64,000 nt of DNA from Streptomonospora nanhaiensis (GTDB taxonomy: Bacteria > Actinomycetota > Actinomycetes > Streptosporangiales > Streptosporangiaceae). A model generated the notes under the pieces. That model saw nothing but the letters and a program-made list of their open reading frames with translations, did not search any database and was not told where the DNA came from. Numbering within the stretch: position 1 is the stretch's first letter; every line of letters begins with the position of its first letter. Below are positions 11,519 to 55,287 of the stretch, piece after piece. The DNA lies in NCBI RefSeq assembly GCF_013410565.1, contig NZ_JACCFO010000001.1:1922001-1986000 (forward strand), written 5' to 3'. The translations under genes were made by a program, and so were the position numbers.

Positions 11519-11554
11519 TTCCACTTCGCGGAATTTGCTTTTCACTTGAAGGAA
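11519..11554. promoter_or_regulatory. Tandem 15-bp operators of the hyi-glxR-gcl promoter
   Basis: TTCCACTTCGCGGAA (11519-11533) and TTTCACTTGAAGGAA (11540-11554), both TTyC-N7-GGAA inverted repeats, 21 bp apart (two helix turns). They lie just after the hyi -10 box, where a repressor would block RNA polymerase, and between hyi and the divergent iclR. The same type of pair occurs before malate synthase (55253-55287). Confidence 0.7.
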
Positions 11555-11561
11555 TGGCATG

Positions 11562-11590
11562 AGTCTGTGCCAGCCCTGGGGGCTTGTCAA
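11562..11590 (-). promoter_or_regulatory. Promoter of hyi-glxR-gcl
   Basis: Perfect -35 TTGACA (11590-11585), 17-bp spacer, weak -10 CAGACT (11567-11562). The operator pair starts 7 bp further on. Confidence 0.55.
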
Positions 11591-11730
11591 CCACCCCAAT
11601 GGGAGGACGGCCGCCTTTATCCGGCTTCTGTATGGCGGAGCTCGGCTTCTACAATCCGAAACAGCACCCGCAGGCGCTCCCGCCGGAACCCCCGGCGCCG
11701 AGCGGCGGCACTGGGAAGGGAGCACCGGAC

Positions 11731-12528
11731 GTGGCAACGCCATCGGCGGCGGCCGACGCCGCCGACACCCCGGCCAAGGCGCGCGGCGGGGGCGTGCAGT
11801 CGCTCGACCGCGCCTTCGCCCTGCTGGAGATCATGGCCGACGCGGGCGGCGAGATCTCCCTCAGCCAGCTCGCGGAGTCCTCCGGGCTGCCCCTGCCGAC
11901 CATCCACCGCATCATCCGCACCCTGGTGGGCAAGGGCTACGTGCGCCAGCTCCCCTCACGGCGCTACGCGCTCGGCCCCCGGCTCATCGGGCTGGGCGAC
12001 AGCGCCTCGCGGATGCTGGGCACCTGGGCGCGCCCGCACCTGACCCACCTGGTCGAGGAACTCGGCGAGACCGCCAACCTGGCCATGCTCGACGGCGACA
12101 AGGTGGTCTACGTCGCCCAGGTCCCCTCCCAGCACGCCATGCGGATGTTCACCGAGGTCGGCCGGCGGGTCCCCGCGCACTCGGCGGGGGTGGGCAAGGC
12201 ACTGCTCGCCCAGCTCCCCGACCGGGAGGCCATGGCGGTGCTGCACCGCGCGGGCATGCCCGCGGCGACGGACCGCACCATCACCACCCCCGACGCCTTC
12301 GCCGCCGAGATCACCCGCATCCGCGAGCGCGGCTACGCCATCGACGACGGCGAGCAGGAGGTCGGCGTCCGCTGCCTGGCGGTCCCGGTCCGGGGCGGAC
12401 CCGCCATGATGGCGGTCTCGATCTCGGGCCCGGAGGCCCGTGTCAGCTGGGAGTTCGTCACCAGGGCCGCCCCCATCGTCCAGCGCGCCGCAGCCGAACT
12501 GGCCGCCGACCTCGACCACCGCGAGTAG
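11731..12528 (+). CDS. IclR-family transcriptional regulator of glyoxylate genes
   Basis: 265 residues from GTG 11731, which has AAGGGAG 9 nt upstream; the in-frame 49 codons before it cross the divergent regulatory region. The N-terminal winged helix (about 22-85) shows GVQSLDRAFALLEIMAD, SLSQLAESSGLPLPTIHRII and YALGPRLIGLG. The effector domain includes HLVEELGETANLAMLDGDKVVYV, VPAHSAGVGKALLAQLP and GVRCLAVPV. It is divergent from hyi-glxR-gcl, as AllR/GclR-type repressors often are, so I infer control by glyoxylate or a related acid. The likely sites are the TTyC-N7-rGAA pairs here and before aceB. A perfect hairpin separates it from convergent era. Confidence 0.88.
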   Translation: MATPSAAADAADTPAKARGGGVQSLDRAFALLEIMADAGGEISLSQLAESSGLPLPTIHRIIRTLVGKGYVRQLPSRRYALGPRLIGLGDSASRMLGTWARPHLTHLVEELGETANLAMLDGDKVVYVAQVPSQHAMRMFTEVGRRVPAHSAGVGKALLAQLPDREAMAVLHRAGMPAATDRTITTPDAFAAEITRIRERGYAIDDGEQEVGVRCLAVPVRGGPAMMAVSISGPEARVSWEFVTRAAPIVQRAAAELAADLDHRE

Positions 12529-12538
12529 CGCCGGGCGC

Positions 12539-12566
12539 GGGCCGCGCCGCGTCCGCGGCGCGGCCC
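12539..12566. terminator. Bidirectional terminator between iclR and era
   Basis: A perfect 12-bp GC stem with a 4-nt loop (GTCC) between convergent genes. No T tract. Confidence 0.7.
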
Positions 12567-12568
12567 CC

Positions 12569-13537
12569 TCACGTCTGCTGGTCGAACCCCAGCCGGCGCA
12601 ACTGCTTGGGGTCGCGCTGCCAGTCCTTGGCCACCTTCACCCGCAGGTCGAGGTAGACGCGGGTGCCCAGCAGCGCCTCGATCTGCCGGCGGGCCGCCGA
12701 GCCGACCTCCCGCAGGCGGGCGCCCTTGGCGCCGATCACGATGGCCTTCTGGCTGGAGCGCTCCACATACAGCGAGGCGTAGATGTCGATCAGCTCGCGC
12801 CCGGGGCGGGAGTTCTCGCGCGGCGCCATCTCGTCGACCACCACGGCGATGGAGTGCGGCAGCTCGTCGCGCACGCCCTCCAGGGACGCCTCGCGGATCA
12901 GCTCGGCCACCAGCATCTCGTCGGGCTCGTCGGTGAGGTCGCCGTCGGGGTACAGCGGCGGCCCCTCCGGCAGGTGGCCGCACAGCACGTCGGCCACGGT
13001 GTCGACCTGGAAGCCGCTCTGCGCCGACACCGGCACGATGTCGGCCCACTCCCCCAGCTGCTCCACCGCCATGAGCTGCCTGGTGACACCCGCGCGGTCG
13101 GTGCGGTCGGTCTTGGTGACCAGCGCGACCACCGGGGTGTCGCGCTGGGCGGCCAGCTCGCGGGCGATGTAGGTGTCCCCCCGGCCGATGGGCTCGTCGG
13201 CGGGCAGGCAGAAGGCGATCACGTCGACCTCGACCAGCGTGGAGCGCACCAGGCTGTCCAGGCGCTCGCCCAGCAGCGTGCGCGGCTTGTGCAGCCCGGG
13301 GGTGTCCACGATGATGAGCTGGGCGTCCTCGCGGTGCACGATGCCGCGCACGGTGCGCCGCGTGGTCTGCGGGCGGTCGCTGGTGATGGCCACCTTCTGG
13401 CCCACCAGCGCGTTCATCAGGGTCGACTTGCCCACGTTGGGGCGGCCGACGAAGCAGGCGAACCCGCTGCGGAAGCCCTCCGGGTAGGAGGGCATGGGCA
13501 GCGGCGCGCGCAGCTTCTCAAGGTCGAGGTCGTCCAT
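12569..13537 (-). CDS. era: GTPase Era
   Basis: 322 residues. GTPase needed for 16S rRNA 3'-end maturation and 30S assembly. G1 GRPNVGKST at 31-39, the G2 region with QTTRRTVRG, G3 DTPGLH at 78-83, G4 TKTD, then the C-terminal KH domain with VIGAKGARLREVG. The N-terminal ~25 residues are a short actinobacterial extension. The ATG at 13537 follows TGGAGAG. Last gene of a minus-strand cluster phoH-ybeY-CNNM/CBS-deaminase-like-era, an order conserved in Streptomyces. It ends against the perfect hairpin shared with iclR. Confidence 0.96.
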   Translation of the reverse strand: MDDLDLEKLRAPLPMPSYPEGFRSGFACFVGRPNVGKSTLMNALVGQKVAITSDRPQTTRRTVRGIVHREDAQLIIVDTPGLHKPRTLLGERLDSLVRSTLVEVDVIAFCLPADEPIGRGDTYIARELAAQRDTPVVALVTKTDRTDRAGVTRQLMAVEQLGEWADIVPVSAQSGFQVDTVADVLCGHLPEGPPLYPDGDLTDEPDEMLVAELIREASLEGVRDELPHSIAVVVDEMAPRENSRPGRELIDIYASLYVERSSQKAIVIGAKGARLREVGSAARRQIEALLGTRVYLDLRVKVAKDWQRDPKQLRRLGFDQQT

Positions 13538-13608
13538 CTCTCCAGTCTCATCCGCTCCCTGCGCGGTGCTCCACCGCGCCGGGGATCGAGCGTTGCTCCG
13601 CGCCGGGG

Positions 13609-13959
13609 TCAGGACCGCACGGCGCGGACCGGGGTGCCGTCGACGTCGGCGAACACCACCAGCGGGGTCTTCATGTCGGCGGCCGCGGCGGTGTCGGCCT
13701 CCGCCGGGGTGGTGGAGGGGGTCACCACCGCCGCGGCCTCCAGGGATTCGGCGCCGCTGGAGACGGCCGCCGCGACGGCGGCCTGCAGCGCCGACAGCCG
13801 CAGCGACGGCAGGTCCACGGTGGCCGCCGTGTAGGTGCGGCCGGTCTCGTCGCGCACCGCGGCGCCCTCGGCGGCACCGGTGCGGGCGCGCGTGGCGCGG
13901 GCCAGTGTTATCAGCTTGTCGTCCTCGGGGCCGAGGTCGACCGCGGCCAACTCACTCAC
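13609..13959 (-). CDS. Cytidine deaminase-like protein without zinc ligands
   Basis: 116 residues from a GTG with GGAGAG about 10 nt upstream. It resembles the small cytidine deaminase-like proteins found between the CNNM/CBS gene and era in Streptomyces: LITLARATRARTGAAEGAAVRDETGRTYTAATVDLP followed by LSALQAAVAAAVSSGAESLEAAAVV. The H/C-A-E and P-C-x-x-C zinc-binding motifs of true cytidine deaminases are absent and the protein contains no cysteine at all. So a catalytic role is unlikely; it may be a structural or regulatory relic. The co-directional neighbours are 49 nt (upstream) and 71 nt (downstream) away, consistent with one operon. Confidence 0.8.
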   Translation of the reverse strand: MSELAAVDLGPEDDKLITLARATRARTGAAEGAAVRDETGRTYTAATVDLPSLRLSALQAAVAAAVSSGAESLEAAAVVTPSTTPAEADTAAAADMKTPLVVFADVDGTPVRAVRS

Positions 13960-14008
13960 TGCTGTGCACTCTCCTCGTCGGGCGGGTGGGACACGCGGCC
14001 GGGCGGGG

Positions 14009-15415
14009 TCACCGCCCCTCGTCCGGCTGGGGGGCGACGGCCTCCACGAGCACCGTGGCCGTCTGGTTGCGGCGGCCCACCGTGTCCTCGGCGGTCAGCC
14101 GCAACCCAGCGTAGACGGCCTGGGAACCGGTGATGGGCACCCGGCCCAGCGCGTAGGCGAGCAGGCCCCCGACCGTCTCGACCTCGGGCACGTCCAGCTC
14201 GGCGCCGAACAGCTCGGCCAGCTCACCCAGCGGCAGCCGCGCCGTGACACGCGCCCGGCCCTCGCCCAGCCGCTCGATCGGCGGGATCTCGTCGTCGTAC
14301 TCGTCGGTGATCTCGCCGACGATCTCCTCCACGATGTCCTCGATGGTGACCAGTCCGGCGGTGCCGCCGTACTCGTCGATGACCACGGCCACGTGGATGC
14401 GCCGCTGCTGCATGTCGCGCAGCAGCTCGTCGATCGGCTTGGAGTCGGGCACGAAGGTGGGCGCGCGCATGACCGTCTCGACGGTCGCCGCGGGGTCGCC
14501 GCCGGCCGCCGCGCCCCGCGCCGCGCCGCCGTCCTCCTCGCGCGCCCAGTCGCGGCGGATGCGGGCCACCAGGTCCTTGAGGTAGACCACGCCCACCACG
14601 TCGTCCTCGTCGGCGCCCAGCACCGGTATCCGGGAGAACCCGCTGCGCAGCGCCAGGGTCAGCCCGTCGTCCAGCGAGGCGTCGCGCTCCACGAACACGA
14701 TGTCGGTGCGCGGCACCATCACCTCGCGCACGGAGGTGTCGTCCAGCTTGAACACCGAGTGGATCATCTGCCGCTCGTCGGCGTCGATCACGTGCCCGCG
14801 CTCGGCGAGGTCCACCAGCCGGCGCAGCTCGCTCTCGCTGGTGAACGGCCCCTCGCGGTCGCCGATGGTGCGCGGGGTCAGCGCCCGGCCCAGCCGGACC
14901 AGCGTGTGGGTGAGGGGCCGCAGCAGCGGCGCCACGGGCGCCAGGACGGTGACGCTGGCGCCGGCCAGCGCGGGCGCGAACTGCCGGCCCAGGATGCGCG
15001 GGGTGACCCCCACGAGCACGAAGTCCACCACCGACATCACCAGCACCGCGCTCACCACCGCGGGCCAGCCCGCGCCCAGCCACCCGGCGAACCCGACGGT
15101 CAGCGCCACCGCCGCCACGACCTCGCAGAAGACGCGCAGCAGCAGCACCATGTTCAGGTGCCCGGCGGGCTCGGCCAGCACCGCGCGCAGCCGCCGGGTG
15201 CCGGGGCGGTCGTCGTCGGCGAGGTCGCCGGTCATGCCGGCGGCCCGGGCGACGGCGACCTCGGCGCTGACGAAGAACGCCGCCGCGAGCGCGAACACGG
15301 CGGCGGCCGGAAAGACGTAGAGCGGCGCCAGGGCGGCCTGGTCGAAGGCCGCCGCGAGCGGATGCGGCCCCGGCGACGCGGCGGGGACGAGCGGGACCGC
15401 CGTGCCCGGGGTCAT
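14009..15415 (-). CDS. CNNM/CorC-type membrane protein with CBS domains (hemolysin family)
   Basis: 468 residues. An N-terminal DUF21 membrane domain has about four helices, beginning around [21 protein letters not shown], up to residue ~165. Next come a CBS pair (from [20 protein letters not shown] to [19 protein letters not shown]) and a C-terminal CorC/HlyC domain ([34 protein letters not shown]). Relatives act in Mg2+/Co2+ transport or its control; the hemolysin label is historical. The ATG at 15415 overlaps the ybeY stop (ATGA), so the two are coupled. A Gly/Ala insert interrupts the first CBS domain near residue 300. Confidence 0.9.
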
Positions 15416-15903
15416 CTGGGGGTGTTCTCCCGCGTCTCAGCGCGGTCGTCGGTCTCGGCGGCCCGCCAGCCCGCCAGCAGTTCGCCCTGGAGCCCGAACA
15501 TCTCCTTGTGCTCGTCGGGTTCGGCGTGGTCGTAGCCGAGCAGGTGCAGGATGCCGTGCGTGCACAGCAGGTCGATCTCCTCCTGCGCGCTGTGCCCGGC
15601 CTTCTCGGCCTGGCGCGCGGCGACCTGGGGGCAGATGATCACGTCGCCCAGGACGCCGGGCTCGGAGGGGCGGTCCTGGCCGCCGGGCCGCAGCTCGTCC
15701 ATGGGGAAAGAGAGGACGTCGGTGGGGCCGGGTTCGTCCATCCAGCGGACGTGCAGTTCGGCCATCGGCTCCTCGTCCACCAGGACGACGGACAGCTCCG
15801 CCAGCGGGTGGACCCGCATGGCGTCGAGGACGAAGCGGGCCAGCCGCGACAGCCGCTCCTCGTCCACCGGGACGCCGGACTCGTTCGCGACGTCAATGCT
15901 CAT
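15412..15903 (-). CDS. ybeY: Endoribonuclease YbeY (rRNA maturation factor)
   Basis: 163 residues. The zinc-binding motif [11 protein letters not shown] is at 116-126 with ligands His116, His120 and His126. The upstream conserved stretch is [19 protein letters not shown], followed by [11 protein letters not shown]. YbeY is involved in 16S rRNA 3'-end processing and 70S quality control. The stop codon overlaps the start of the CNNM/CBS gene by 4 nt. It lies 121 nt behind phoH, the usual phoH-ybeY arrangement. The C-terminal ~20 residues after WRAAE are charged and not conserved. Confidence 0.95.
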
Positions 15904-16024
15904 GGGTCAGCGCGCCTTCATGTCGTATGGGTGTCGGAAGCCGCGGCGGCCGCCCCGGGTGGCGGGCGCCGCGACGGGCGGCGCGCCGGCCGGGGCGCGC
16001 CGCCCGCGGAACGCTAGCGGACGG

Positions 16025-17074
<1,050 letters not shown>

Positions 17075-17248
17075 GATGTGGCCTTGCGGCCGTCTCGCCC
17101 CTACCTCTCGAATGTCCGGGTCACGGGTGTGGATCGCTGGTGCGGCGGTCCGCGCCGGGGGATGGGAGCACCGTGGCGACAGTGGACTGCAGCGAACGGT
17201 GTCGTCTGCCCAAAGTCTACCAACGGCGCAGATGCCGACCCCAGGGGT

Positions 17249-17605
17249 TTATCCGGGGGGCCACTCCAGGCCGCGGCCGCCCAGCAGGTGGCCGTGCAGG
17301 TGGAACACGGTCTGGCCGGCGCCCGAACCGGTGTTGAAGACCAGGCGGTAGCCGGTCTCGGCGATGCCCTCGGATTCGGCGATGGCGTGCGCCTCGCGCG
17401 CGATCTCGTCGAGCAGGCCGGTGCCGGCCCGGGCGGCGCCCGCGGCGTCGGGGTAGTGGTCGCGCGGGACGAGCAGCACGTGCGTGGGCGCCTGCGGGTT
17501 GATGTCGCGGAAGGCCACGACGCGCTCGCCCTGGCGGACGATGTCGGCGGGGGCCTCGCCCGCGGCGATCTTGCAGAACAGGCAGTCGGGGTCGTAGGTG
17601 CTCAC
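17249..17605 (-). CDS. HIT-family (histidine triad) nucleotide-binding protein
   Basis: 118 residues from GTG 17605 with GGAGG upstream; the 71 in-frame codons before it are Arg/Ala-rich noise. It begins with the Hint-type CLFCKIAAGE (CX2C), then AFRDINPQAPTHVLLVPRDHYP, and ends with the triad HLHGHLLGG, here HxHxH where most members have HVHxH. Hint proteins hydrolyse nucleoside phosphoramidates. Typical length and gene order upstream of phoH for actinomycetes. Divergent from the sigma-factor gene at 18017; the 411 bp between them hold no gene. Confidence 0.92.
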   Translation of the reverse strand: MSTYDPDCLFCKIAAGEAPADIVRQGERVVAFRDINPQAPTHVLLVPRDHYPDAAGAARAGTGLLDEIAREAHAIAESEGIAETGYRLVFNTGSGAGQTVFHLHGHLLGGRGLEWPPG

Positions 17606-18016
17606 CTGTGGGTCGTCCTCCCTGGCCGGTGGCGCTGGTGCGGGGCGGCGGGCCGCCCGCCGCCGACTCCCCATGATGCCCGAGTGGCGGGTGGTGCGCC
17701 GCGCGCGCCGCCCGCCTGTGGAGGACCGGGCGGCCCGGCGGGCGGCCCCCTTCGGGCGCCCGGCCGCAAGCGGTCGGCGGGTGAGGTCTTGCCCTCCGCG
17801 GGGTCCGCCCGCCCTCACCCGCGGGGGGCGTCCCGGGCCCGGCCGCGCGGGCTATTCTGTTGCTTCGCGTAACTACCCCCGCGCCGTCCTGTACTGTCGG
17901 CAACCCCGCTGCCCGTGGCCGCGGGGCTTGTGCGGCCGTGCCTTCGCTCCGGCGGGGTCGGTTTCGCGCTCAGCGTCCGATCGCAGCACCAACGAGGCGG
18001 AACGAGAAGTACAGGT
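17606..18016. other. Intergenic region between divergent HIT and sigma-factor genes
   Basis: 411 bp with promoters for both genes by position. The right part is slightly AT-richer (around 17850-17900). No clear -35/-10 pair or inverted repeat stood out, and the open frames inside look like noise. Confidence 0.5.
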
Positions 18017-18604
18017 ATGCCCTTTCGTAAACCCGGCGACAAGGGCGCGCGTCCTACGGACGTGACTGAGACTATGGTCGCGGGGGCCACGGCGGCGTCG
18101 ATGACCGCCGAATGGGACGCCGACAAGGCCGTCACCCAGCTCTACAGCGAGCAGTACCGCCCGCTGGTCCGGCTGGCCACCCTCCTCGTTCGCGACTTCG
18201 CCACCGCCGAAGAGGTCGTGCAGGACGCCTTCGTCGCGATGCACGGCGCCTGGCGGCGCCTGCGCGACCCCAACAAGGCCCTGTCCTACCTGCGCCAATC
18301 CGTGGTCAACCGGGCCCGTTCGGTTCTGCGGCACCGCGCCGTGGTAGAAAAGCACGCGCCGAAGGCACTGCCCGACGCTCCCAGCGCCGAACACGGAGCA
18401 TTGGGCGAACTGGAGCGCGCGGCGGTCATCGAGGCACTGCGGGCGCTGCCCACCCGGCAGCGGGAGGCGATCGTCCTGCGGTACTACGGTGACCTGTCCG
18501 AGGCGCAGATCGCCGACGCCATGGGGATCAGCCGCGGTGCCGTCAAGAGCCACACGGCACGGGGCATCGCCGCGCTCCGCTCTGTTCTGGAGCAGACGAC
18601 ATGA
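18017..18604 (+). CDS. RNA polymerase sigma factor, SigE/ECF family
   Basis: 195 residues from ATG 18017 with GAGAAG 9 nt upstream. Region 2 covers about 38-105: LYSEQYRPLVRLATLLVRDFATAEEVVQDAFVAM, with AWRRLRDPNKALSYLRQSVVNRARS. Region 4 with its helix-turn-helix covers about 135-190: ALPTRQREAIVLRYYGDLSEAQIADAMGISRGAVKSHTARGIAALR. There is no SnoaL-type C-terminal extension. The stop codon overlaps the next ATG (ATGA), tying it to a membrane protein that is probably its anti-sigma factor. The promoter it recognises, and the signal, are unknown. The N-terminal ~35 residues are not conserved. Confidence 0.92.
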   Translation: MPFRKPGDKGARPTDVTETMVAGATAASMTAEWDADKAVTQLYSEQYRPLVRLATLLVRDFATAEEVVQDAFVAMHGAWRRLRDPNKALSYLRQSVVNRARSVLRHRAVVEKHAPKALPDAPSAEHGALGELERAAVIEALRALPTRQREAIVLRYYGDLSEAQIADAMGISRGAVKSHTARGIAALRSVLEQTT

Positions 18605-19335
18605 CCGAACGACCAGACGACGCCTTCGAGGACCGTCTCCGCGCGATCCTGCGCGCCGAGGCCGACTCCGTCGCCCCCTCCCCCGAGGCGCTGACCGCCA
18701 TCCGGGCCCGCACCCAGCGCAACTCCCGGTTCTGGGCGCTGTTCACGCCGTCGTGGCTGCGGCCGTCGCTGGCGGTGGGCGCCGCCGCGCTGATCGCCGG
18801 CTCGGTGCTGCTGGGCACGCCGCAGGTCCGCGACCAGATCCTGCCGCAGTCGCTGACCTCCCCGGCCGGGGAGGGCGGTGGCGGCGCCGAGCGCCCCGGC
18901 GGCGACCCCGGCGACGACGACCTGGTGGAGTCCGAGCCCACCGACCGCCCCTCCGCGGGCGATCCCCCCAGCGAGGGCTCCGAGCCGTCCACCGACGCCC
19001 TGGCGCCCGAGGCGTCCGCGGACCCCGCCACGCCCTACGGCCCCGCCCAGGCGTGCCCGCCCGACGGTTCCTCCACCGCACCGCCGGTCACCCCCAGCGG
19101 CTCGCCGGAGGAGCCGGACTCCGCGGCGCCGGCCCCCGCCGAGTGCGACGAGCCCGCCGACCCCGCGCCCGAGCCCGGCGGTCCCGGCGGCGACCCCGGC
19201 TCGCCCGACGACTCCACCACCCCGCCCGCGCCGCCCGGCGGCGGCGACGCCGGCGGGGACGGCGAGCAGCCCTCCACCACGCCGCCCAGCTCCTCGGGCG
19301 AGGCCGGCACCGACCCGGTCCTGGAGACCCACTGA
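18601..19335 (+). CDS. Putative anti-sigma factor, single-pass membrane protein
   Basis: 244 residues, coupled to the sigma-factor gene by ATGA. A short cytoplasmic part (1-48) begins with DDAFEDRLRAILRAEADSVAPSPEAL. One membrane helix is at about 57-75 (LAVGAAALIAGSVLLG). The remaining ~165 residues are an extracellular Pro/Gly/Glu/Asp-rich segment with two Cys that could form a disulphide. The zinc motif HX3CX2C of ZAS anti-sigma factors is missing, so the assignment rests on position and topology. Similar small membrane partners follow SigE-type sigma genes in Streptomyces. Confidence 0.65.
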   Translation: MTERPDDAFEDRLRAILRAEADSVAPSPEALTAIRARTQRNSRFWALFTPSWLRPSLAVGAAALIAGSVLLGTPQVRDQILPQSLTSPAGEGGGGAERPGGDPGDDDLVESEPTDRPSAGDPPSEGSEPSTDALAPEASADPATPYGPAQACPPDGSSTAPPVTPSGSPEEPDSAAPAPAECDEPADPAPEPGGPGGDPGSPDDSTTPPAPPGGGDAGGDGEQPSTTPPSSSGEAGTDPVLETH

Positions 19336-19427
19336 CCTCTGGGTCCCGCCCGGCCGGCGGCCCCTCCGCTCTGCCCGGCGCCTCGGGTCCTGCGGTGGCC
19401 GTCCCGCGTTGGCGTTCGGAGCGGGCC

Positions 19428-20180: not shown

Positions 20181-20231
20181 GTGCGCGCCCTTCTCAACGG
20201 GCGCCGGCCCGGGGGGCTCGGCGCGGGAACC

Positions 20232-20264
20232 AATAAACGGCCCGCCCGCGGTGCGGGCGGGCCG
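20232..20264 (-). terminator. Rho-independent terminator after dnaJ
   Basis: 12-bp perfect stem (CGGCCCGCCCGC with its complement, 20238-20264) and a 3-nt loop, followed on the minus strand by TTTATT. One of the few hairpins in the window with a T-rich tail. Confidence 0.75.
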
Positions 20265-20278
20265 GTGGCCGGGGGCCG

Positions 20279-22435: not shown

Positions 22436-22446
22436 GCGCTCACCTC

Positions 22447-42020: not shown

Positions 42021-42069
42021 ACGGATTCCTTTCCGGCTCGGGGCCGCGTCCGCATCCGGTCATTAGTAG

Positions 42070-48900: not shown

Positions 48901-49491
48901 CCCACCAAGGCGAGCGAACGCCTCCAGTTCGTCAAGGGCGAGTTCGCGCGCGCGGGCCGCCAGATCACGGCCGACGCCGCCCAGGCCCTGCTCGACGCCG
49001 TCGGCACCGACCTGCGCGAACTCGCCGCCGCGTGCACCCAGCTCGCCGCCGACACCGAGGGCCGCGTCGACGCCGCCGCCGTGGCGCGCTACCACACCGG
49101 AAAGGCGGAGGTCAGCGGGTTCACCGTCGCCGACCGCGCGGTCGAGGGCCGGATCCCCGAGGCGCTGGAGCAGCTGCGCTGGTGCCTGGCCGTGGGCACG
49201 GCCCCGGTGCTGATCAACAGCGCCCTGGCGGGCGCGGTGCGCGGCTTGGCCGTGGTGGCGCAACCCCAGCGCGGCGTGCCCGACACCGAACTCGCCAAGG
49301 CGGCCAAGGTCCCGCCGTGGAAGCTGAAGACCCTCCGCCAGCAGGCGCGCGGCTGGTCGCCCACGGGCGTCGCCCGCGCCCTGGCCGTCGTCGCCGAGAC
49401 CGACGCCCTGATCAAGGGCGCCGGCCGCGACCCCGCCTACGCCCTCGAACGCGCCGTCATCGAGATCGCCGGAGCCCGCAACCAGCGCTGA
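45928..49491 (+). CDS. comEC: ComEC/Rec2 DNA-uptake channel; open frame runs on into holA
   Basis: From ATG 45928 the ComEC part covers about 860 residues. N-terminal membrane segments and an OB-like domain (about 90-240) are followed by the Competence domain with LPALVVGDTSRVPPETAAAFRDSGMTHLLTVSGSNLAIM and many helices. A metallo-beta-lactamase-like C-terminal domain has THGDLDHVGG, GNDGSVVLL, LTGDIE and VPHHGAGS. It carries single-stranded DNA across the membrane. No stop codon occurs in this frame before the end of holA (49491): the ~55 Arg/Ala-rich residues after GDIAVVPEPRG lead straight into the holA Met. In fact 48330-48520 has no stop in any plus frame. Either a ComEC-HolA fusion, 1187 residues, or a ComEC reading frame whose stop was lost. 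Confidence 0.82.
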   Translation: MYLGTDSPGGAELPDLRLVLPALATWACTAVLLGGTARAACAAAAALAVVAVGVWALGRRERFPRLPLAAVAVCMAAGALATAGRLAAVESSPITHLANEEASVTLDLAITDDPRPRADPPAPGRPRLIIEARAEAVLADAAMPAADPANVPTPASAEGAAGTAGTAVFGTSDVSPAAEAGAVRTRVPVVVLASGEAWRDLLPSQRVRAEGTVLPAEGDPLVGGVFVVRGPPERLDPPSPAQAWAGHTRARLRAAASGLPEPADGLLPALVVGDTSRVPPETAAAFRDSGMTHLLTVSGSNLAIMTGAALGAMRWLGRTGVPAAVVGAATVAVFVLVARPEPSVLRAAFMASIALLAVALGRRRTGVAALAAATLGLLLFDPGLARSFGFALSVLATAGILVLAPRWRDRWSARLPTWLAEAVAVALAAHVACLPLLAVLSAEVSWVAVPANVLAAPAVPLASVGGFAVAGLALVWPWAAQTVVWLPGAAVLWIDAVASTAARLPGRAVPWPATALGAVLLALLVAAALALRGRTARAVGAAGLAAALTALALTWVAPGWPPPGWALVACRIGQGDALVLTAEGGGRAVVVDTGPDPAAIDSCLADLRVSEVALLVLTHGDLDHVGGTRGAIGGRSVRAALVPPAFDHPQTLRTLRSERIPVHVGTAGQRWRVAPWTLDVLWPRAGGAAPVGNDGSVVLLARWPLASGGAMTALLTGDIEEPAQRALLGSHAVRGVDVLKVPHHGAGSQEPTFIAATRPDITLTSVGAGNPYGHPDPATWAQLRRLPSADYRTDRHGDIAVVPEPRGAGGRPAERPAAVCRDPGPRRGAGRTAARTARRRARRTARRLSGARHRTVAGAWHAAGMASTSAPPPLSVVVGDEELLVDRAVAELVAAARAEEPGVDVHDLMPGQVTAGKLVEVTSPSLFGERRVVVLRAVQDLGKDLAAEVTRYLTAPAEDVMLVLVHAGGAKGKALLDAAVKAGATRITCAKPTKASERLQFVKGEFARAGRQITADAAQALLDAVGTDLRELAAACTQLAADTEGRVDAAAVARYHTGKAEVSGFTVADRAVEGRIPEALEQLRWCLAVGTAPVLINSALAGAVRGLAVVAQPQRGVPDTELAKAAKVPPWKLKTLRQQARGWSPTGVARALAVVAETDALIKGAGRDPAYALERAVIEIAGARNQR
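48520..49491 (+). CDS. holA: DNA polymerase III subunit delta
   Basis: 323 residues from ATG 48520, in the same frame as comEC. Delta opens the sliding clamp during loading. It has the AAA+-like delta fold: PLSVVVGDEELLVDRAVAELV, PSLFGERRVVVLRAVQDLGKD, VHAGGAKGKALLDAAVKAGA, FVKGEFARAGRQITADAAQALLDAVGTDLRELAAACTQL, and the C-terminal AKAAKVPPWKLKTLRQQARGWS. The length equals that of stand-alone HolA proteins. There is no SD, but CATGCT at 48508-48513 lies 6 nt before the ATG, so a separate leaderless transcript is possible. Whether it is also made as a fusion to ComEC cannot be told from sequence. Confidence 0.9.
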   Translation: MASTSAPPPLSVVVGDEELLVDRAVAELVAAARAEEPGVDVHDLMPGQVTAGKLVEVTSPSLFGERRVVVLRAVQDLGKDLAAEVTRYLTAPAEDVMLVLVHAGGAKGKALLDAAVKAGATRITCAKPTKASERLQFVKGEFARAGRQITADAAQALLDAVGTDLRELAAACTQLAADTEGRVDAAAVARYHTGKAEVSGFTVADRAVEGRIPEALEQLRWCLAVGTAPVLINSALAGAVRGLAVVAQPQRGVPDTELAKAAKVPPWKLKTLRQQARGWSPTGVARALAVVAETDALIKGAGRDPAYALERAVIEIAGARNQR

Positions 49492-50017
49492 CACGGGTGC
49501 CCCGGTGGTCGAGGACGGCGCGGCCCTCCCGACCCGGTGGCCGAGCGCATCGGAAGGCACGCCGCCACCGCCGCCCGCGCGCGAGGGGCGCTTCGCCCCC
49601 CGGCCGCCCCGGTACTCCCCGCCCGAACCGGGACGAGTCGGGGGACCGGGACCCGCCCGGCCGGGGCGGCCCGGACCTCCACACCCGGGTCCCGGCCACG
49701 GTCGGCCCCCCGCTCACCGCTGCGGCACATCCGCTGATCGGCGCCCGGTCACGCGGCCGTTGGCCGCTGACGGCCGCTGACCGGGGCACCTGCTCTCCCC
49801 TCAACGATCTGGGAGAGCCCCACGGATCGGCGGGCGGCCGTGGGGTTCTTGCCGACGGGGCCACGCTGAGAGCGAGCGACCGTCAGGTGCCGGGCCGCTC
49901 GGCGGCCTCGCGCCGTACGGGGTGGAACCGCCGGTACACGTGGAGGGCCCGGGCGCCCGGACGGGGAGGAGCCCTGGTGCTGCTCCAGCCGGTTCCGCCG
50001 AAGCGGGCGCAGCCGGG
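49492..50017. other. Intergenic region between holA and a tetR gene
   Basis: About 530 bp without a convincing gene; open frames on both strands are Arg/Pro-rich noise. It holds the hairpin at 49815-49848 and, at the right end, the promoter of the tetR gene. No tRNA was recognised. Confidence 0.6.
49815..49848. terminator. Hairpin in the holA-tetR intergenic region
   Basis: GAGCCCCACGG (49815-49825) pairs with CCGTGGGGTTC (49838-49848), 11 bp with one G-T pair and a 12-nt loop, followed by TTGCC. Could end holA transcription although 320 bp away. Confidence 0.5.
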
Positions 50018-50051
50018 TTGACAAACCTAGGGTTGTGAGTGTGTACTCACA
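50018..50051 (+). promoter_or_regulatory. tetR promoter with overlapping operator
   Basis: Perfect -35 TTGACA (50018-50023) and, 18 bp on, TGTACT as -10 (50042-50047). The inverted repeat TGTGAGT-N4-ACTCACA (50034-50051) covers the -10, a typical place for TetR autorepression. The gene starts 4 nt later, so the message is leaderless or nearly so. Confidence 0.7.
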
Positions 50052-50054
50052 TAC

Positions 50055-50660
50055 ATGGAACGCATCGAACCCGCCCGCTCGACCGCCGAGGCCCGGCGGG
50101 CCGCCGTCATCGAGCGCGCCGTGGCCGTCTTCGCCCGGAACGGGTACCACGCCACGCCGGTCGCCGACGTCGCGGCCGCCGCCGGAATCTCCCAGGCATA
50201 CGTCTTCCGCCTGTTCGACGGCAAGCTCGGTTTGTTCACCGCGGCGCTGGAGCACTGCTACGCGCGGATCGCGGACGCGCTGCGCAAGGGCGCCGACAAG
50301 GCGGGCGGCGGTTCGCCGGCCGAGGTGCTGGAGGCCATGGGCGACGCCTACGCCGACCTCATCGCCGATCGCGACCTGCTGATGATGCAGGTCCACGCCC
50401 AGAGCGTGGCCGACATCCCCGAAGTCCTGGCGGCGATGCGGCGCGGCTACGCGGCGGTGGTGTCGCTGACCTACACCCTTTCGGGCGCCAACCGCGACCA
50501 GGTCCAGCACTTCATGGCCATGGGGCAGCTGTGCCACCTGATCGCGGCACTGGACCTCGACTCGGTGGACGCGACCTGGGCGCGCACCCTCACCAAGGGC
50601 ATGCGCCACGTTCCCGCCCCGCCGAGGAGTACGCGGGCCTCGGGCCAGGGCGACACCTGA
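50055..50660 (+). CDS. TetR-family transcriptional regulator
   Basis: 201 residues from ATG 50055. Helix-turn-helix: RRAAVIERAVAVFARNGYHATPVADVAAAAGISQAYVFRLFDGKLGLFTAALEHCY. The C-terminal helical domain has MGDAYADLIADRDLLMMQVHAQSVADIPEVLAAMRRGYAAVVS. An 18-bp palindrome overlaps its own -10 box, so it represses itself. A rho-independent terminator follows at 50725-50748, and the frameshifted oxidoreductase gene comes next on the same strand. That gene has a different palindrome in its promoter region, so joint control is not certain. Confidence 0.9.
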   Translation: MERIEPARSTAEARRAAVIERAVAVFARNGYHATPVADVAAAAGISQAYVFRLFDGKLGLFTAALEHCYARIADALRKGADKAGGGSPAEVLEAMGDAYADLIADRDLLMMQVHAQSVADIPEVLAAMRRGYAAVVSLTYTLSGANRDQVQHFMAMGQLCHLIAALDLDSVDATWARTLTKGMRHVPAPPRSTRASGQGDT

Positions 50661-50724
50661 GCCACCGCGCACCGCCGGCACCGGGCGCGGGCACGGCCGC
50701 CCGGGGCTGACGTCCGTCCGCCCC

Positions 50725-50748
50725 TCCGCCGCAACGGCGGACTTTTTT
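50725..50748 (+). terminator. Rho-independent terminator after tetR
   Basis: TCCGCCG-CAA-CGGCGGA stem (50725-50741) followed by CTTTTTT, the clearest classical terminator in the window. Confidence 0.85.
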
Positions 50749-50757
50749 CGCCCCAAC

Positions 50758-50777
50758 AAGTGACTGACCAATCACTT
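50758..50777. promoter_or_regulatory. Palindrome before the oxidoreductase gene
   Basis: AAGTGA-N8-TCACTT, a 20-bp interrupted inverted repeat 40 bp before the ATG at 50817. TetR-type spacing; which regulator binds is unknown. Confidence 0.5.
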
Positions 50778-50816
50778 ACTTTCGTACCGACACACCACAC
50801 CCCACGGGAGCACGCC

Positions 50817-51937
50817 ATGGAGCGCACCGACCGCACCCGCCCCACCGCCGGAGCCGACGCCGGCACCCGCGCCGCCCACGCCCACTCCGCCGACGACCGC
50901 ACCCCCGGCACCCGCGCCGTTGAGATCGTCCTGCCCGGCGCCGTCGGACCCGCCGGGCTCCAGGTCCGCCGCCGGGAACTCCCCCCGCCCGGCGCCGGCG
51001 AGGTGCTGGTGCGCGTGGAGGCCACCGGCGTCTCCTTCGCCGAGCAGCAGATGCGCCGCGGCAAGTACTTCGACCAGCCGCCGTTCCCCTTCGTGCCGGG
51101 CTACGACCTCATCGGCACGGTCACCGGGGTCGGTGCCGGTGTGGACCCCGCCATGGCCGGGCGCCGCTACGCCGCCCTCACCAAGACCGGCGGCTGGGCC
51201 AGCCACGCCGTCCTCGCCGCCGCCGACCTGGTGCCGGTGCCCGAGGGCCTCGACGCCGCCGAGGCCGAGACCCTGGTCGTCAGCGGCGTCACCGCCTGGC
51301 GCATGCTGCACCACGTCGCCCGGTCCGCCGCGGCCAGACCGTGCTGGTGCACGGCGCCAACGGCGGTGTGGGCACCGTCCTCGTCCAACTCGCCCGCCAC
51401 GCCGGGGCCCGGGTGATCGGCACCGCCTCGCCGCGCCACCATGACACCGTCCGGGCCCTGGGCGCCGAGCCGGTGGACTACACCGCCCCCGGCCTGCCCG
51501 CCCGCGTCCGCGCGCTCGCCCCCGAGGGGGTCGACGCCGTCTTCGACCACGTCGGCGGGCCGGGGATCGTGGACTCCTTCCGCCTGCTGAACCGGGGCGG
51601 GACACTCGTCGCCTACGGCACCGCCGCCACCCGGGACGTCGCCGGGTCCTCGTACCTGCCCGTGCTCAAACTGCTGGCGCGGCTGGCCGTCTGGAACGCG
51701 CTGCCCAACGGGCGCCGAACGCACTTCTTCAACGTCTGGGCGGGCCGCCGCGACCGCGCCCGGTTCCGCGCGCGGCTGCGCGAGGACCTCGGCGCCGTGT
51801 TCGCCCTGCTGGCCGACGGCACGCTCAGCGCGCGGGTCGCCGCCCGGTTCCCGCTGACCGAGGCCGCGGCGGCGATGGAACTGGCGGAGTCCAAGACGGT
51901 CGTGGGCAAGGTGGTGCTGCTGGGCGCCGACGCCTGA
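50817..51937 (+). pseudogene. Zinc-less alcohol dehydrogenase / quinone oxidoreductase, frameshifted
   Basis: Two overlapping open frames make one MDR-family NAD(P)H-dependent oxidoreductase of about 370 residues. The first frame (ATG 50817, GGGAG upstream) covers the substrate domain: EVLVRVEATGVSFAEQQMRRGKYFDQPPFPFVPGYDLIGTV and VSGVTAWRMLHHVARSAA. The second (to 51937) has the cofactor domain: QTVLVHGANGGVGTVLVQLARHAGARVIGTA, VDAVFDHVGGPGIVDSF and LTEAAAAMELAESKTVVGKVVLL. The junction is at 51330-51334: one G is missing in GCGGCC (GCGGGCC would restore A-A-G-Q-T-V-L-V). Otherwise the protein is intact, so the shift is recent or a sequencing error. No zinc ligands. Confidence 0.85.
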
Positions 51938-52031
51938 TACGCCCGCGCGCCTCCGCTTCCGCCCGGTCCGACCGCGCGCGGTCGGCCGGTCGGCCCCGTC
52001 CGGCCGGCCGCCGCAGGCCGACCGGACGGCC

Positions 52032-53240
52032 TCAGCGGATGGTCTCGCCGCCGCGCCACACGCGCAGCGTGTTGAGCCCGTAGGACCAGGCGAACGCGCC
52101 CTCGTGGTCGGCGTCCCACTGCACGATGTCGGCGTAGTGGCCGGGCGCCAGCAGGCCGCGGTCGGTCAGCCCCAGCGCGAACGCGCCGCCGACCGTGGCG
52201 GCCCGCAGCGCCTCAAGGACGCTCATGTTGAACATGGACACCGCCATGGAGATCGCCAGCGGCAGGGACATGGTGCCCGACTGCCCCGGGTTGTGGTCGG
52301 TGCCCAGGCCGACCGGCACGCCGTGGTCCAGCAGCGCGCGCACCGGCGGGGTGCGGCGCTCGTGCAGCGAGGTGGTGGGGCACACCACCACCGGCGTGGA
52401 GGTCTTGGCCAGCGCCAGGACGTCGTCCTCGTCGGTGTCGTGGAGCAGGTCCACCGAGGAGCACTGCATGTCGGCGGCCATGCGCACCGCGCCGTGCCGG
52501 GGCTTCGCGCAGGCGTGCATGTGGGTGCGCAGCCCGGCCGCCCGCGCCGCCGACAGCAGCCGGGCGGCGTCGTCGGTGGTGAACTGCTGGTTGTCGCAGT
52601 AGACGTCCACCCCGTGGGCGCCCGCCTGCGCGGCGTCGCTGAGCCAGGAGCACACCGCGTCGACGTAGTCGTGCGGGCGGCCGAAGTACTCCGGCGGCAC
52701 CGCGTGCGCGGCGAAGAAGGTGACCTGCAGCCGCGGCATGCCGGGCTCCTCCTCCAGGGCGCGCAGCAGCCGGACGTCGGCGAGTTCGCCGTCGCGGGTG
52801 AGGTGGTAGCCGGTCTTGGCCTCGACCGTGGTGCAGCCCGACAGCACCCAGTGCCGCAGGCGCTCGCGCACCGCGTTGCACAGGGTCCAGGGATCGGTGC
52901 CGCGGGTCACGGTGACGGTGGAGGCCACGCCGCCGCCCGCCCCGGTGATCTCGGACTTGGAGGCGCCGCCGGCGCGCATGGCGATCTCGGCGTAGCGGTT
53001 GCCCGCGTAGACCGGGTGGCAGTGGGCGTCGATCAGCCCGGGGGTGACCAGGCCGCCGCCGATGTTGTCGACCTCGTCCACGTCCACGATGTCGTTGATG
53101 ACACCGGGCAGGCTCTGGGGGAGGTCGGCCGCCGGCCCGACCCACGCGATGCGGTCGTGGTGCACCAGCATGGCGGCGTTACTGAGGAGATCGGTGCCGG
53201 TCCACAGCCGCCCGATGTTCGTCAGCAGTCGTACGGTCAT
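52032..53240 (-). CDS. hutI: Amidohydrolase related to imidazolonepropionase (HutI)
   Basis: 402 residues from ATG 53240 with GGTGAG upstream. Metal-dependent amidohydrolase with LVTPGLIDAHCHPVYAGNRYAEI (HxH metal ligands), GAGGGVASTVTVTRG, TFFAAHAVPPEYF (metal-ligand His), DLLHDTDEDD, and GLGTDHNPGQSGTMSLPLAISMAV (Asp ligand). These follow HutI, which opens the imidazolone ring in histidine breakdown. But some HutI-specific residues differ: KTGYHLT for KSGYGL, and CDNQQFT for CE-x-GAFT. No hutU, hutH or hutG is nearby. So it may act on another cyclic amide; HutI is the best family match. Confidence 0.78.
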   Translation of the reverse strand: MTVRLLTNIGRLWTGTDLLSNAAMLVHHDRIAWVGPAADLPQSLPGVINDIVDVDEVDNIGGGLVTPGLIDAHCHPVYAGNRYAEIAMRAGGASKSEITGAGGGVASTVTVTRGTDPWTLCNAVRERLRHWVLSGCTTVEAKTGYHLTRDGELADVRLLRALEEEPGMPRLQVTFFAAHAVPPEYFGRPHDYVDAVCSWLSDAAQAGAHGVDVYCDNQQFTTDDAARLLSAARAAGLRTHMHACAKPRHGAVRMAADMQCSSVDLLHDTDEDDVLALAKTSTPVVVCPTTSLHERRTPPVRALLDHGVPVGLGTDHNPGQSGTMSLPLAISMAVSMFNMSVLEALRAATVGGAFALGLTDRGLLAPGHYADIVQWDADHEGAFAWSYGLNTLRVWRGGETIR

Positions 53241-53482
53241 CGTCTCACCGGCCCGCTCCGGTAGTCATGGCCGCCGGATCGCGGATGCGGGGCGGAACAC
53301 GCGAGTAGACATAGGCGACCTCGATCTCGACTGGGTCTGGCTGGGGGGAGGGTGGTGCGGCCGGGGAGGCGAGCGACTCACGGGTCTCGAACCAGTGGTT
53401 CAAAACCGTAGTTCATCCTCCGACGCCGTGTACACCTCTCCCCTCCGCAATCCCTCTCCAATTCAGGCTCTGCACACGACAA
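53241..53482. other. Intergenic region between hutI and the hflX terminator
   Basis: About 240 bp, less GC-rich around 53380-53480. It holds the hutI upstream region. A stretch near 53385-53425 recalls a tRNA T-arm on the minus strand but no full tRNA folds. Nothing else is recognised. Confidence 0.45.
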
Positions 53483-53510
53483 CGGCGGAACCCCGTTCGG
53501 GGTTCCGCCG
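53483..53510 (-). terminator. Terminator after hflX
   Basis: Perfect 12-bp stem CGGCGGAACCCC with its complement and a 4-nt loop (53483-53510), 50 bp after the hflX stop; TTGTCGTG follows on the minus strand. Confidence 0.75.
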
Positions 53511-53559
53511 TAGCATATCCGGCGGGTGACCGGTTCGTTACCGCCCGGCCGCCGCAACG

Positions 53560-55041
53560 CTAGCCGACGACCGCGTACTCCTCCAGCTTTCCGGCCAGGA
53601 GTTCGGGCACCCAGGCGTGCAGCCGCGTGCCGTCGCCGGTGTGGTCCTGGTCGATGATCCGGCCCTCGGCGTGCACCCGGGACACCAGGTCGCCGCGATC
53701 GTAGGGCAGCACCACGCGGACCTCGCGGTCCAGGGTGGGCAGCGCCCCGGCCACCGCCGCGACGAGGTCGTCGATGCCCTCGCCGGTGCGGGCCGAGACC
53801 TCGACCGCCTGCGGCTCCTTGGCCTTGAGCTGCTTGAGCACCAGCGGGTCGGCGGCGTCGGTCTTGTTCAGCACGACGAGTTCGGGCACGTCCTGCGCGC
53901 CGATCTCGGCGAAGACCTCGCGCACCGCGCTGAGCTGCTGCTCGGGGTCGGGGTGCGAGGCGTCGACCACGTGCAGGATGAGGTCGGAGTCGGCGACCTC
54001 CTCAAGGGTGGACCGGAACGCCTCGACGAGCTGGTGCGGCAGGTGCCGCACGAACCCGACCGTGTCGCTGAGCGTGAACGACCGGCCGTCGGGCGTGCGC
54101 GCCTGGCGGATCGTGGGGTCCAGGGTGGCGAACAGCGCGTTCTCCACGAGCACCCCGGCGTTGGTCAGCCGGTTGAGCAGGCTGGACTTGCCGGCGTTGG
54201 TGTAGCCGGCGATCGACACCGCAGGCACCTGGCGGACCTGGCGCTGGTCGCGCTGGACCTCGCGCGTGGTGGCCATGTGCGCGAGCTGGCGGCGGAGCTT
54301 GGCCATGCGGGCGTTGATGCGTCGCCGGTCGGTCTCGATCTTGGTCTCACCGGGGCCGCGCAGACCCACACCGCCGTTGCCGCCGCCGGCGCGGCCGCCG
54401 GCCTGCCGGGACAGCGCCGAACCCCACCCGCGCAGGCGCGGCAGCAGGTAGCTGAGCTGGGCGAGCTCGACCTGGGCCTTGCCCTCGCGGCTGCGCGCGT
54501 GCTGGGCGAAGATGTCGAGGATCAGCGCGGTGCGGTCGATGACCTTGACCTTGACGACGTCCTCGAGCTGGCGGAGCTGGCTGGGCGCGAGCTCGCCGTC
54601 GCAGATGACGGTGTCGGCGCCGGTGCTCTCGACGATCTCGCGCAGCTCGTCGGCCTTGCCGCGGCCGATGTAGGTGGCGGGGTCGGGCTTGCGGCGCCGC
54701 TGGGTCACGCCCTCCAGGACCAGCGCTCCGGCGGTCTCGGCGAGCTGCTTCAGCTCGTACAGGGAGTTGTCGGCGTCGAGCTGGGTGCCGCTGGTCCACA
54801 CGCCCATGAGGACGACGCGCTCCAGCCGCAGCGAGCGGTACTCGACCTCGGTGACGTCGGTGAGTTCGGTGGACAGGCCCTCGACGCGGCGCAGCGCGTG
54901 GCGCTCGGCGAGGTCGAGTTCGCCCTGCTCGGGGACGTCGGCCAGAGTCTGGGCGCGGTCCTCGGCGGTGTGCTCACGGTCGTCGGCCCAGGCGCCGCGG
55001 GCGGCGGGGTCGATGGGACCGTGGTCAAAGAAAGTATTCAT
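53560..55041 (-). CDS. hflX: GTPase HflX
   Basis: 493 residues from ATG 55041, which has GGAGGG 3 nt upstream; the earlier in-frame codons to 55182 are not conserved. The N-terminal nucleotide-binding HflX domain has LERVVLMGVWTSG, YIGRGKADELREIVESTGADTVICDGELAPSQLRQLED, and LPRLRGWGSALSRQAGG with GLRGPGETKIETDRRRI. The GTPase domain has G1 GYTNAGKSSLLNRL, G3 DTVGFVRHLPHQLVEAF and G4 NKTD. HflX splits stalled 70S ribosomes under heat or antibiotic stress. In Streptomyces it follows miaA-dapF; here aceB-glcDEF lies between them. Confidence 0.95.
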   Translation of the reverse strand: MNTFFDHGPIDPAARGAWADDREHTAEDRAQTLADVPEQGELDLAERHALRRVEGLSTELTDVTEVEYRSLRLERVVLMGVWTSGTQLDADNSLYELKQLAETAGALVLEGVTQRRRKPDPATYIGRGKADELREIVESTGADTVICDGELAPSQLRQLEDVVKVKVIDRTALILDIFAQHARSREGKAQVELAQLSYLLPRLRGWGSALSRQAGGRAGGGNGGVGLRGPGETKIETDRRRINARMAKLRRQLAHMATTREVQRDQRQVRQVPAVSIAGYTNAGKSSLLNRLTNAGVLVENALFATLDPTIRQARTPDGRSFTLSDTVGFVRHLPHQLVEAFRSTLEEVADSDLILHVVDASHPDPEQQLSAVREVFAEIGAQDVPELVVLNKTDAADPLVLKQLKAKEPQAVEVSARTGEGIDDLVAAVAGALPTLDREVRVVLPYDRGDLVSRVHAEGRIIDQDHTGDGTRLHAWVPELLAGKLEEYAVVG

Positions 55042-55220
55042 ATCCCTCCGGTTGGGAGAACGCCGGGACCGCGGTGACTTGTTCCCGCCCCGTCCGTCCC
55101 CTTGATGGTCGCATGCGGGGGTTGACCGGGGCACGCGTTTTTCCCGGTGGCGTGCCGCGGAAAAAGCCGGCGACCTTTCCACCTGGGCAAAGAGTGCGGC
55201 GCTGCGGCGGGGGGCCGCCG

Positions 55221-55249
55221 TTGACCCTGCCGCGACCGGCGAGTAGCGT
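55221..55249 (+). promoter_or_regulatory. Promoter of malate synthase gene
   Basis: TTGACC (55221-55226), 17-bp spacer, TAGCGT (55244-55249). A good actinobacterial sigma70-type promoter, with the operator pair starting 4 bp after the -10. Confidence 0.75.
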
Positions 55250-55252
55250 CAA

Positions 55253-55287
55253 TTCCACATACCAGAAGTAAATTTCGCTTCGTGGAA
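55253..55287. promoter_or_regulatory. Tandem operators before malate synthase
   Basis: TTCCACATACCAGAA (55253-55267) and TTTCGCTTCGTGGAA (55273-55287), starts 20 bp apart. The second matches the reverse complement of the 11519-11533 site at 11 of 15 positions. The pair lies across the transcription start and overlaps the aceB SD, as expected for repression by the IclR protein of the gcl locus. Confidence 0.7.

What the first reader, a model, noticed from the sequence alone, without database searches (positions are those of the whole stretch)
11519..55287. A two-locus glyoxylate regulon marked by twin 15-bp operators 44 kb apart
Seen: TTCCACTTCGCGGAA and TTTCACTTGAAGGAA (11519-11554) before hyi-glxR-gcl, and TTCCACATACCAGAA and TTTCGCTTCGTGGAA (55253-55287) before malate synthase. 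In both places the pair is 20-21 bp apart and lies 4-8 bp after the -10 of a promoter with 17-bp spacing. Known: IclR-family repressors sit beside gcl operons in other bacteria and often bind paired inverted repeats. Inference: the IclR protein at 11731 represses both loci, joining Gcl, Hyi, GlxR, malate synthase and probably GlcDEF in one response to glycolate/glyoxylate.
Basis: partly seen in the sequence, partly recalled or inferred. Interest (0 to 1): 0.75.

Follow-up and report, generated by a model that had tools for sequence, protein, structure and literature searches.

The report
AllR-type glyoxylate regulon, allantoin genes lost
A single IclR-family repressor most likely controls two sets of glyoxylate-using genes and itself through paired DNA operators; it looks like a trimmed version of a known bacterial allantoin regulon that has lost its allantoin genes and now seems to serve glycolate instead.

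Summary
The four 15-bp sites are at the stated coordinates and far above chance. In the 6.28-Mb genome the exact tandem pair occurs at three places: before hyi-glxR-gcl, before aceB, and once more (probably chance). In 149 genomes, 75 of 84 exact pairs lie within 250 bp upstream of aceB, hyi, gcl or iclR. A TTGAC -35 box precedes the pair in 44 of 54 aceB and 35 of 35 hyi rows. In relatives it lies across the promoter of a divergent DUF6986-allB (allantoinase) operon. That operon, allantoicase and the promoter hexamers are gone in the window's genome; the operator stayed. The system is thus an AllR-type regulon (known from Streptomyces, recalled) without its allantoin branch, leaving gcl-glxR-hyi, malate synthase A and glcDEF. 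Caveat: in the family, aceB operator and regulator co-occur (72 of 75 genomes against 0 of 13), but on the tree the operator changes once, and where the regulator alone differs the operator does not, so this is no independent evidence. Ordinary in kind; interesting as regulon shrinkage.

The parts
7475..9196 (-). gcl, glyoxylate carboligase
   Evidence: open frame with MVQMPAMN start; 78-96% identical partners in the same hyi-glxR-gcl order in L065, L066, L069, L070, L072, L078, L081; TPP-enzyme domains shown on the L126 (S. alba) counterpart
9418..10305 (-). glxR, tartronate semialdehyde reductase
   Evidence: TIGR01505, 350.3 bits, over its cut-off
10603..11412 (-). hyi, hydroxypyruvate isomerase
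   Evidence: TIGR03234 best hit, E 2e-70, below the curated cut-off
11519..11554 (.). operator pair O1 (two 15-bp sites, 21 bp centre to centre), 7 bp after the -10 of the hyi promoter
   Evidence: conserved before hyi in relatives
11562..11590 (-). likely hyi promoter: TTGACA, 17 bp, CAGACT
   Evidence: TTGAC in 35 of 35 hyi upstream rows
   Evidence: (1 mismatch)
   Evidence: PF09339 HTH_IclR and PF01614 IclR_C over cut-off; orthologues
55221..55249 (+). likely aceB promoter: TTGACC, 17 bp, TAGCGT
   Evidence: TTGAC in 44 of 54 aceB upstream rows
55253..55287 (.). operator pair O3 (20 bp centre to centre), 3 bp after the -10 and ending 9 nt before the aceB ATG; its right arm runs into the likely ribosome-binding site GGAAGG
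55297..56901 (+). aceB, malate synthase A; only match in this genome at E 1e-80 (malate synthase G not searched)
   Evidence: TIGR01344, 800 bits, over cut-off; one match in G000
56978..58501 (+). glcD-like glycolate oxidase subunit, 76 bp after aceB
   Evidence: TIGR00387 517.9 bits, just below the curated cut-off 567.9
58533..59849 (+). glcE-like subunit
   Evidence: NF008439 GlcE E 7.9e-44, below cut-off; FAD_binding_4
59846..61225 (+). glcF-like iron-sulfur subunit, overlaps glcE by 4 bp
   Evidence: CCG and 4Fe-4S domains

Best explanation
The IclR-family protein at 11731 is an AllR-type repressor. A tetramer, one dimer per 15-bp site, sits on two same-face sites two helical turns apart, at the expected transcription start of hyi-glxR-gcl and of aceB-glcDEF, and blocks RNA polymerase. 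Glyoxylate, made by GlcDEF from glycolate or by isocitrate lyase, binds the C-terminal pocket and releases it, opening the routes glyoxylate to malate (AceB) and glyoxylate to tartronate semialdehyde to glycerate (Gcl, GlxR, Hyi). A third pair in front of iclR sets its own level. The ancestor also controlled allantoin genes through that third operator; the window's lineage lost those genes and their promoter but kept the operator. Shown: sites, promoter-like motifs, conservation, gene content, loss pattern. Inferred: binding, repression, ligand, operon co-transcription, autoregulation.
For: Exact pair at 3 places genome-wide, control 0. In 149 genomes 86 exact matches (84 distinct places, 64 genomes) against 12 for the reversed control; 75 of the 84 lie at most 250 bp upstream of aceB (49), hyi (21), gcl (3) or iclR (2). 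TTGAC ahead of the pair in 44 of 54 (shuffled mean 1.2) and 35 of 35 (0.8) rows. Within family f1, a pair at aceB in 72 of 75 genomes with the regulator and 0 of 13 without. O2 kept in 14 of 14 loci without allB, while its divergent promoter is kept in 2 of 14, both cut by contig ends; with allB the promoter is there in 39 of 42. Allantoicase: 0 matches in G000; allantoinase over cut-off only in G002, 1 of 6 genus genomes. The effector domain's best PDB match is the acetate operon repressor 2o99; by my reading of that alignment, of the oxygen-binding residues in Table 1 of PMC11323563 (passages) Gly160, Asp212, Ser239 and Ser241 are kept and Ala161 is Val. Tandem palindromes 18-22 nt apart are predicted for 94 of 181 IclR orthologous groups (PMC8222616, sections 13-15).
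Against: No binding or expression data. On an AceB tree of 68 genomes (quick method) the aceB operator is a single change and the regulator four; in 2 of 2 independent pairs of genomes that differ in the regulator (4 counting weak branches) the operator does not differ. Three genomes with a regulator lack the aceB pair (G057, G059, G085). Nine of 84 exact pairs are not at these genes. A related IclR paralogue sits behind aceB in other genera, so the aceB operator may have evolved for that one.
Confidence: 0.82

Rival explanations
1. The protein at 11731 controls only the gcl side and itself; the aceB operator is bound by another IclR-family regulator of the same specificity class.
For: In other genera a separate IclR type lies behind aceB: of 36 family f1 hits of 226-260 bits (49-59% identical), 32 lie 3.8-5.3 kb behind aceB on the same strand (coordinates). 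G068 carries both types.
Against: The window genome has one close member; the next best is 44% identical with 158.7 bits against 562.7. GL-N3-TIHR of the recognition helix is invariant in the 20 aligned rows, two of them of the other type. Operators before aceB in both kinds of genome fit one pattern.
Confidence: 0.1
2. The regulator is an activator, or acts both ways, rather than a simple repressor.
For: BhcR, an IclR relative that handles glyoxylate, activates its cluster (PMC11323563, abstract and passages). The best NCBIfam hit of the window protein is BhcR, below cut-off.
Against: The pairs lie downstream of the -10, over the expected transcription start, at aceB and hyi, a place typical of repression. 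The proposed BhcR site lies upstream of the -35.
Confidence: 0.12
3. The matching pairs are chance or a composition effect of AT-rich upstream DNA.
For: One exact pair elsewhere in the genome (1255883) lies in a T-rich stretch, and no target gene was recognised there. The reversed pattern matches 12 times in the 149 genomes.
Against: 86 against 12 matches and conserved position; reversed controls 0 in G000; 0 to 0.005 of 200 shuffles as good for 22 of 25 fetched regulator-positive aceB regions.
Confidence: 0.01

Closest known systems
AllR of Streptomyces coelicolor (Navone et al. 2015, AEM; paper not held, seen only as a reference and one sentence in PMC12772271)
   Same: IclR family; beside glyoxylate and allantoin genes (recalled). 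Three unnamed f20 genomes, whose layout resembles Streptomyces as I recall it, carry a 64-66% identical protein; exact tandem pairs stand before gcl and hyi in 3 of 3 and before iclR in 2 of 3.
   Different: The window genome has no allantoicase match and no allantoinase over cut-off; aceB heads a glcDEF cluster instead.
E. coli AllR and IclR
   Same: Related C-terminal domain and most ligand residues; AllR acts on the gcl promoter, IclR on aceBAK; both are weakened by glyoxylate (PMC11323563 passages).
   Different: Two regulators in E. coli, apparently one here; different operator (E. coli IclR TGGAAATNATTTCCA, PMC8222616 Table 1 passage); no pair was found at isocitrate lyase by the scans made.
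BhcR of Paracoccus denitrificans
   Same: IclR-family glyoxylate regulator linked to glycolate use; best NCBIfam match, below cut-off.
   Different: Activator of the beta-hydroxyaspartate cycle; proposed site upstream of the -35.
IclR-family tandem operators (Suvorova and Gelfand 2021, PMC8222616)
   Same: 15-bp sites resembling the WTT-11-AAW type; 18-22 nt centre spacing.
   Different: The RGAA arm is not always the GRAA of that consensus. This orthologous group was not seen in the sections read; supplements were not opened.

Membership tests
IclR family | N-terminal HTH_IclR and C-terminal IclR_C domain | tested here: met
   PF09339 63.4 bits, PF01614 146.5 bits, both over cut-off
IclR family | tandem palindromic operators 18-22 nt apart (predicted for 94 of 181 groups) | tested here: met
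   21, 20 and 21 bp; norm from PMC8222616
Actinobacterial AllR regulon | regulator orthologous to the one beside allantoin genes in relatives | tested here: met
   75-85% identical proteins beside DUF6986-allB in Nocardiopsis, S. alba and others
Actinobacterial AllR regulon | operator before glyoxylate genes | tested here: met
   O1 and O3
Actinobacterial AllR regulon | controls allantoinase and allantoicase | tested here: not met
   no allantoicase match in G000; best allantoinase hit 285.5 bits, cut-off 357.85; so it is filed as a derived relative, not a full AllR allantoin regulon
E. coli AllR (NF007548) | equivalog score over 406 bits | tested here: not met
   108.6 bits
BhcR (NF045644) | equivalog score over 350 bits | tested here: not met
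   209.6 bits
Glyoxylate-responsive IclR-type repressors | DNA release by glyoxylate | not testable with these tools
   pocket residues mostly conserved by alignment; no assay

The most novel reading that the evidence does not exclude
A nitrogen-scavenging (allantoin) regulon was turned into a glycolate carbon regulon purely by pruning. The allantoin operon and its promoter hexamers disappeared in several lineages, while the operator they shared was kept because it also serves the regulator gene. The only malate synthase A found in the genome, and with it the glyoxylate shunt (unless a malate synthase G exists, which was not searched), now stands under a glyoxylate-sensing repressor that does not control isocitrate lyase.
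Probability: 0.5. Interest if true: 0.5.

Novelty: new member of a known kind. Interest (0 to 1): 0.38.

Why it matters
It gives a testable operator for a regulator found across Nocardiopsis- and Streptomonospora-type actinomycetes and their kin, assigns the aceB-glcDEF cluster to it, and offers a natural series (operon present, operon lost) for watching a promoter decay while an overlapping operator is kept. It also predicts that malate synthase A, hence growth through the glyoxylate shunt, depends on glyoxylate-driven derepression.

Tried and rejected
Phylogenetic co-occurrence as independent proof: rejected. On the AceB tree (68 rows) the aceB operator changes once, and in the 2 independent pairs that differ in the regulator the operator does not differ.

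Single-site scan for further targets: TTYCRCNTNNNRGAA with up to 1 mismatch gives 145 places against 83 for the reversed control, so single sites say little. The perfect single site at C1:715882 lies near a TPP-enzyme gene; the following frame has no Pfam family; not pursued. The degenerate pair scan was done for the 6-bp gap only; 5-bp gaps were searched exactly only.

Ethylmalonyl-CoA pathway as glyoxylate source: crotonyl-CoA reductase is over cut-off in 0 of 6 genus genomes, isocitrate lyase in 6 of 6. No structure prediction was run, as the fold is not in doubt. The candidate -10 TACAAT inside O2 for iclR has no good -35, and TTGAC was found beside the iclR-side pair in 0 of 42 distinct rows in either direction, so no promoter is claimed for iclR.

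Literature: in the rows listed (10 of 27 listed) and 71 I saw no paper on this regulon in these genera. The key Streptomyces paper is not held, so its details are recalled.
Full report
What was checked. TTYC-N7-RGAA gives 6 matches in the window (5 places) against 0.59 expected. The tandem form with a 4-7 bp gap occurs at 3 places in the 6.28-Mb genome: C1:1933519 (hyi side), C1:1977253 (aceB side) and C1:1255883; the reversed control finds 0. The third lies in a T-rich stretch after a tRNA-synthetase-like frame and before a frame with no Pfam family; I take it for chance.

Organism. The closest named IclR relative is from Streptomonospora mangrovi (96-97%), so the window is from a Streptomonospora or something very near.

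Conservation. In 149 genomes (own included) there are 86 exact matches, 84 distinct places in 64 genomes, against 12 for the reversed control. Of the 84, 75 lie at most 250 bp upstream of aceB (49), hyi (21), gcl (3) or iclR (2); 9 do not. Eleven genomes have exact pairs at both aceB and hyi. The pair follows a promoter-like box: TTGAC is found in the 45 nt before it in 44 of 54 distinct aceB rows (shuffled mean 1.2) and 35 of 35 hyi rows (0.8) (rows with more than 2 mismatches, repeats of one operator sequence and rows with under 45 nt were dropped). In the window the aceB operator ends 9 nt before the ATG, and its right arm runs into GGAAGG, the likely ribosome-binding site; rows of the closer relatives look the same.

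Regulator and operator together. In family f1, 75 of 90 genomes have a regulator over 200 bits and 15 do not (G016 and G036, at 147 and 145 bits, are counted as without). G018 and G078 of the latter have no aceB match. A pair with at most 2 mismatches stands before aceB in 72 of 75 with the regulator (48 exact; 22 of 25 fetched; 2 of 2) and in 0 of 13 without. The exceptions are G057, G059 and G085. This is not independent evidence: on an AceB tree of 68 of the 88 genomes (quick method) the operator needs one change and the regulator four, and in the 2 independent pairs that differ in the regulator (4 counting weak branches) the operator does not differ. The operator at aceB arose or was lost once in the family and is kept throughout the sampled clade that has it.

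A third operator. A scan with up to 2 mismatches and a 6-bp gap returns, besides the hyi pair, 11626-11661 on the minus strand with 1 mismatch, controls 0 and 0. It is directly before iclR, and a like pair stands before iclR in most close relatives. I tested 56 loci with a regulator 75% or more identical. In 42 with an allantoinase gene (allB), 37 keep the operator at 2 mismatches or fewer, and 39 carry a TTG...TANNNT promoter laid over it, reading away from iclR towards a DUF6986-allB operon (gene identities for L126 and L164). In 14 without allB in the locus, 14 keep the operator and 2 keep both hexamers; those two (L132, L153) are cut by contig ends, and L132 still shows DUF6986. Of the other 12, three keep a TTG core only. 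Two of the 12 are repeats (L069 and L124, L072 and L125), which leaves ten genomes, among them the window, Thermobifida and Actinorugispora, where the promoter has decayed and the operator has not. G011, G015 and G044 (L139, L135, L143) also have no allantoicase. The simplest reading is that the operator also serves iclR.

Lost branch. Allantoicase (PF03561) has 0 matches in G000, G001, G003, G004 and G005, and 2 in G002, beside gcl. Allantoinase is over cut-off in 1 of 6 genus genomes, G002; G000's best hit is 285.5 bits against a cut-off of 357.85. In S. alba hyi and iclR starts are 5.5 kb apart with DUF6986-allB between; in the window 319 bp. G002 is nested among the others on the AceB tree, so either several losses or a regain happened.

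What remains. hyi-glxR-gcl; aceB followed by glcD, glcE and glcF with gaps of 76 and 31 bp and a 4-bp overlap. In 7 of 8 family f1 loci with room downstream the order aceB-glcD-glcE holds; L080 shows no glcD or glcE hit, nor does the f20 locus L075. G000 has one malate synthase A match (type G not searched), an isocitrate lyase at C1:1000637-1001884 with no pair found by the scans made, and no crotonyl-CoA reductase over cut-off. Glyoxylate therefore most likely comes from glycolate or from isocitrate lyase.

How it probably works. Tandem palindromes 18-22 nt apart are predicted for 94 of 181 IclR orthologous groups, and IclR proteins can bind as tetramers (PMC8222616, sections 13-15 read). 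The pairs here cover the expected transcription start, so simple blocking is likely. The effector domain matches the acetate operon repressor IclR (2o99) best; the full-length protein matches 2ia2 best. Of the oxygen-binding residues in Table 1 of PMC11323563 (passages), Gly160, Asp212, Ser239 and Ser241 have the same residue by my reading of the alignment and Ala161 is Val; the hydrophobic patch reads Ala, Met, Val, Val. E. coli IclR and AllR are both weakened by glyoxylate (same passages). Ligand and repression remain inferred.

Known or new. Three unnamed f20 genomes have a 64-66% identical protein, exact pairs before gcl and hyi (3 of 3) and before iclR (2 of 3), aceB downstream and allantoicase nearby. 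That is the arrangement I recall for AllR of S. coelicolor; the paper (Navone et al. 2015) is not held and was seen only as a reference and one sentence in PMC12772271. So the system is a new member of a known kind. Less ordinary are the pruning and the kept operator. A related IclR type lies behind aceB in other genera (32 of 36 hits), which leaves a small chance that the aceB operator was first tuned to that paralogue.

Noticed in passing
window 11626-11661: Third tandem operator before iclR; in relatives it is shared with a DUF6986-allB operon that the window genome has lost.
   Followed up: yes
L082 12544-13203; L083 9736-9999; coordinates: A second IclR type (49-59% identical) lies 3.8-5.3 kb behind aceB on the same strand in 32 of 36 hits of family f1.
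   Followed up: partly
L126 8445-9983, L164 8434-9717: A DUF6986 (PF22484) protein of unknown function is next to allantoinase and shares the operator region; it may belong to allantoin or ureidoglycolate breakdown.
   Followed up: no
genome C1:715882-715896 (L004): A perfect single site TTCCGCATAACGGAA near a TPP-enzyme gene; not part of a pair.
   Followed up: partly
L198, L145, L201: Records titled Vibrio cholerae 35D, Glycomyces fuscus and Sphaerisporangium cinnabarinum carry regulators or operators like those of other actinobacteria (Nocardiopsis-like or Cellulosimicrobium-like); labels may be wrong or assemblies contaminated.
   Followed up: no
L154: Streptomonospora nanhaiensis 12A09 has a regulator and operator like Nocardiopsis (75-80% identity) with allantoin genes kept, unlike most of its named genus mates.
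   Followed up: no
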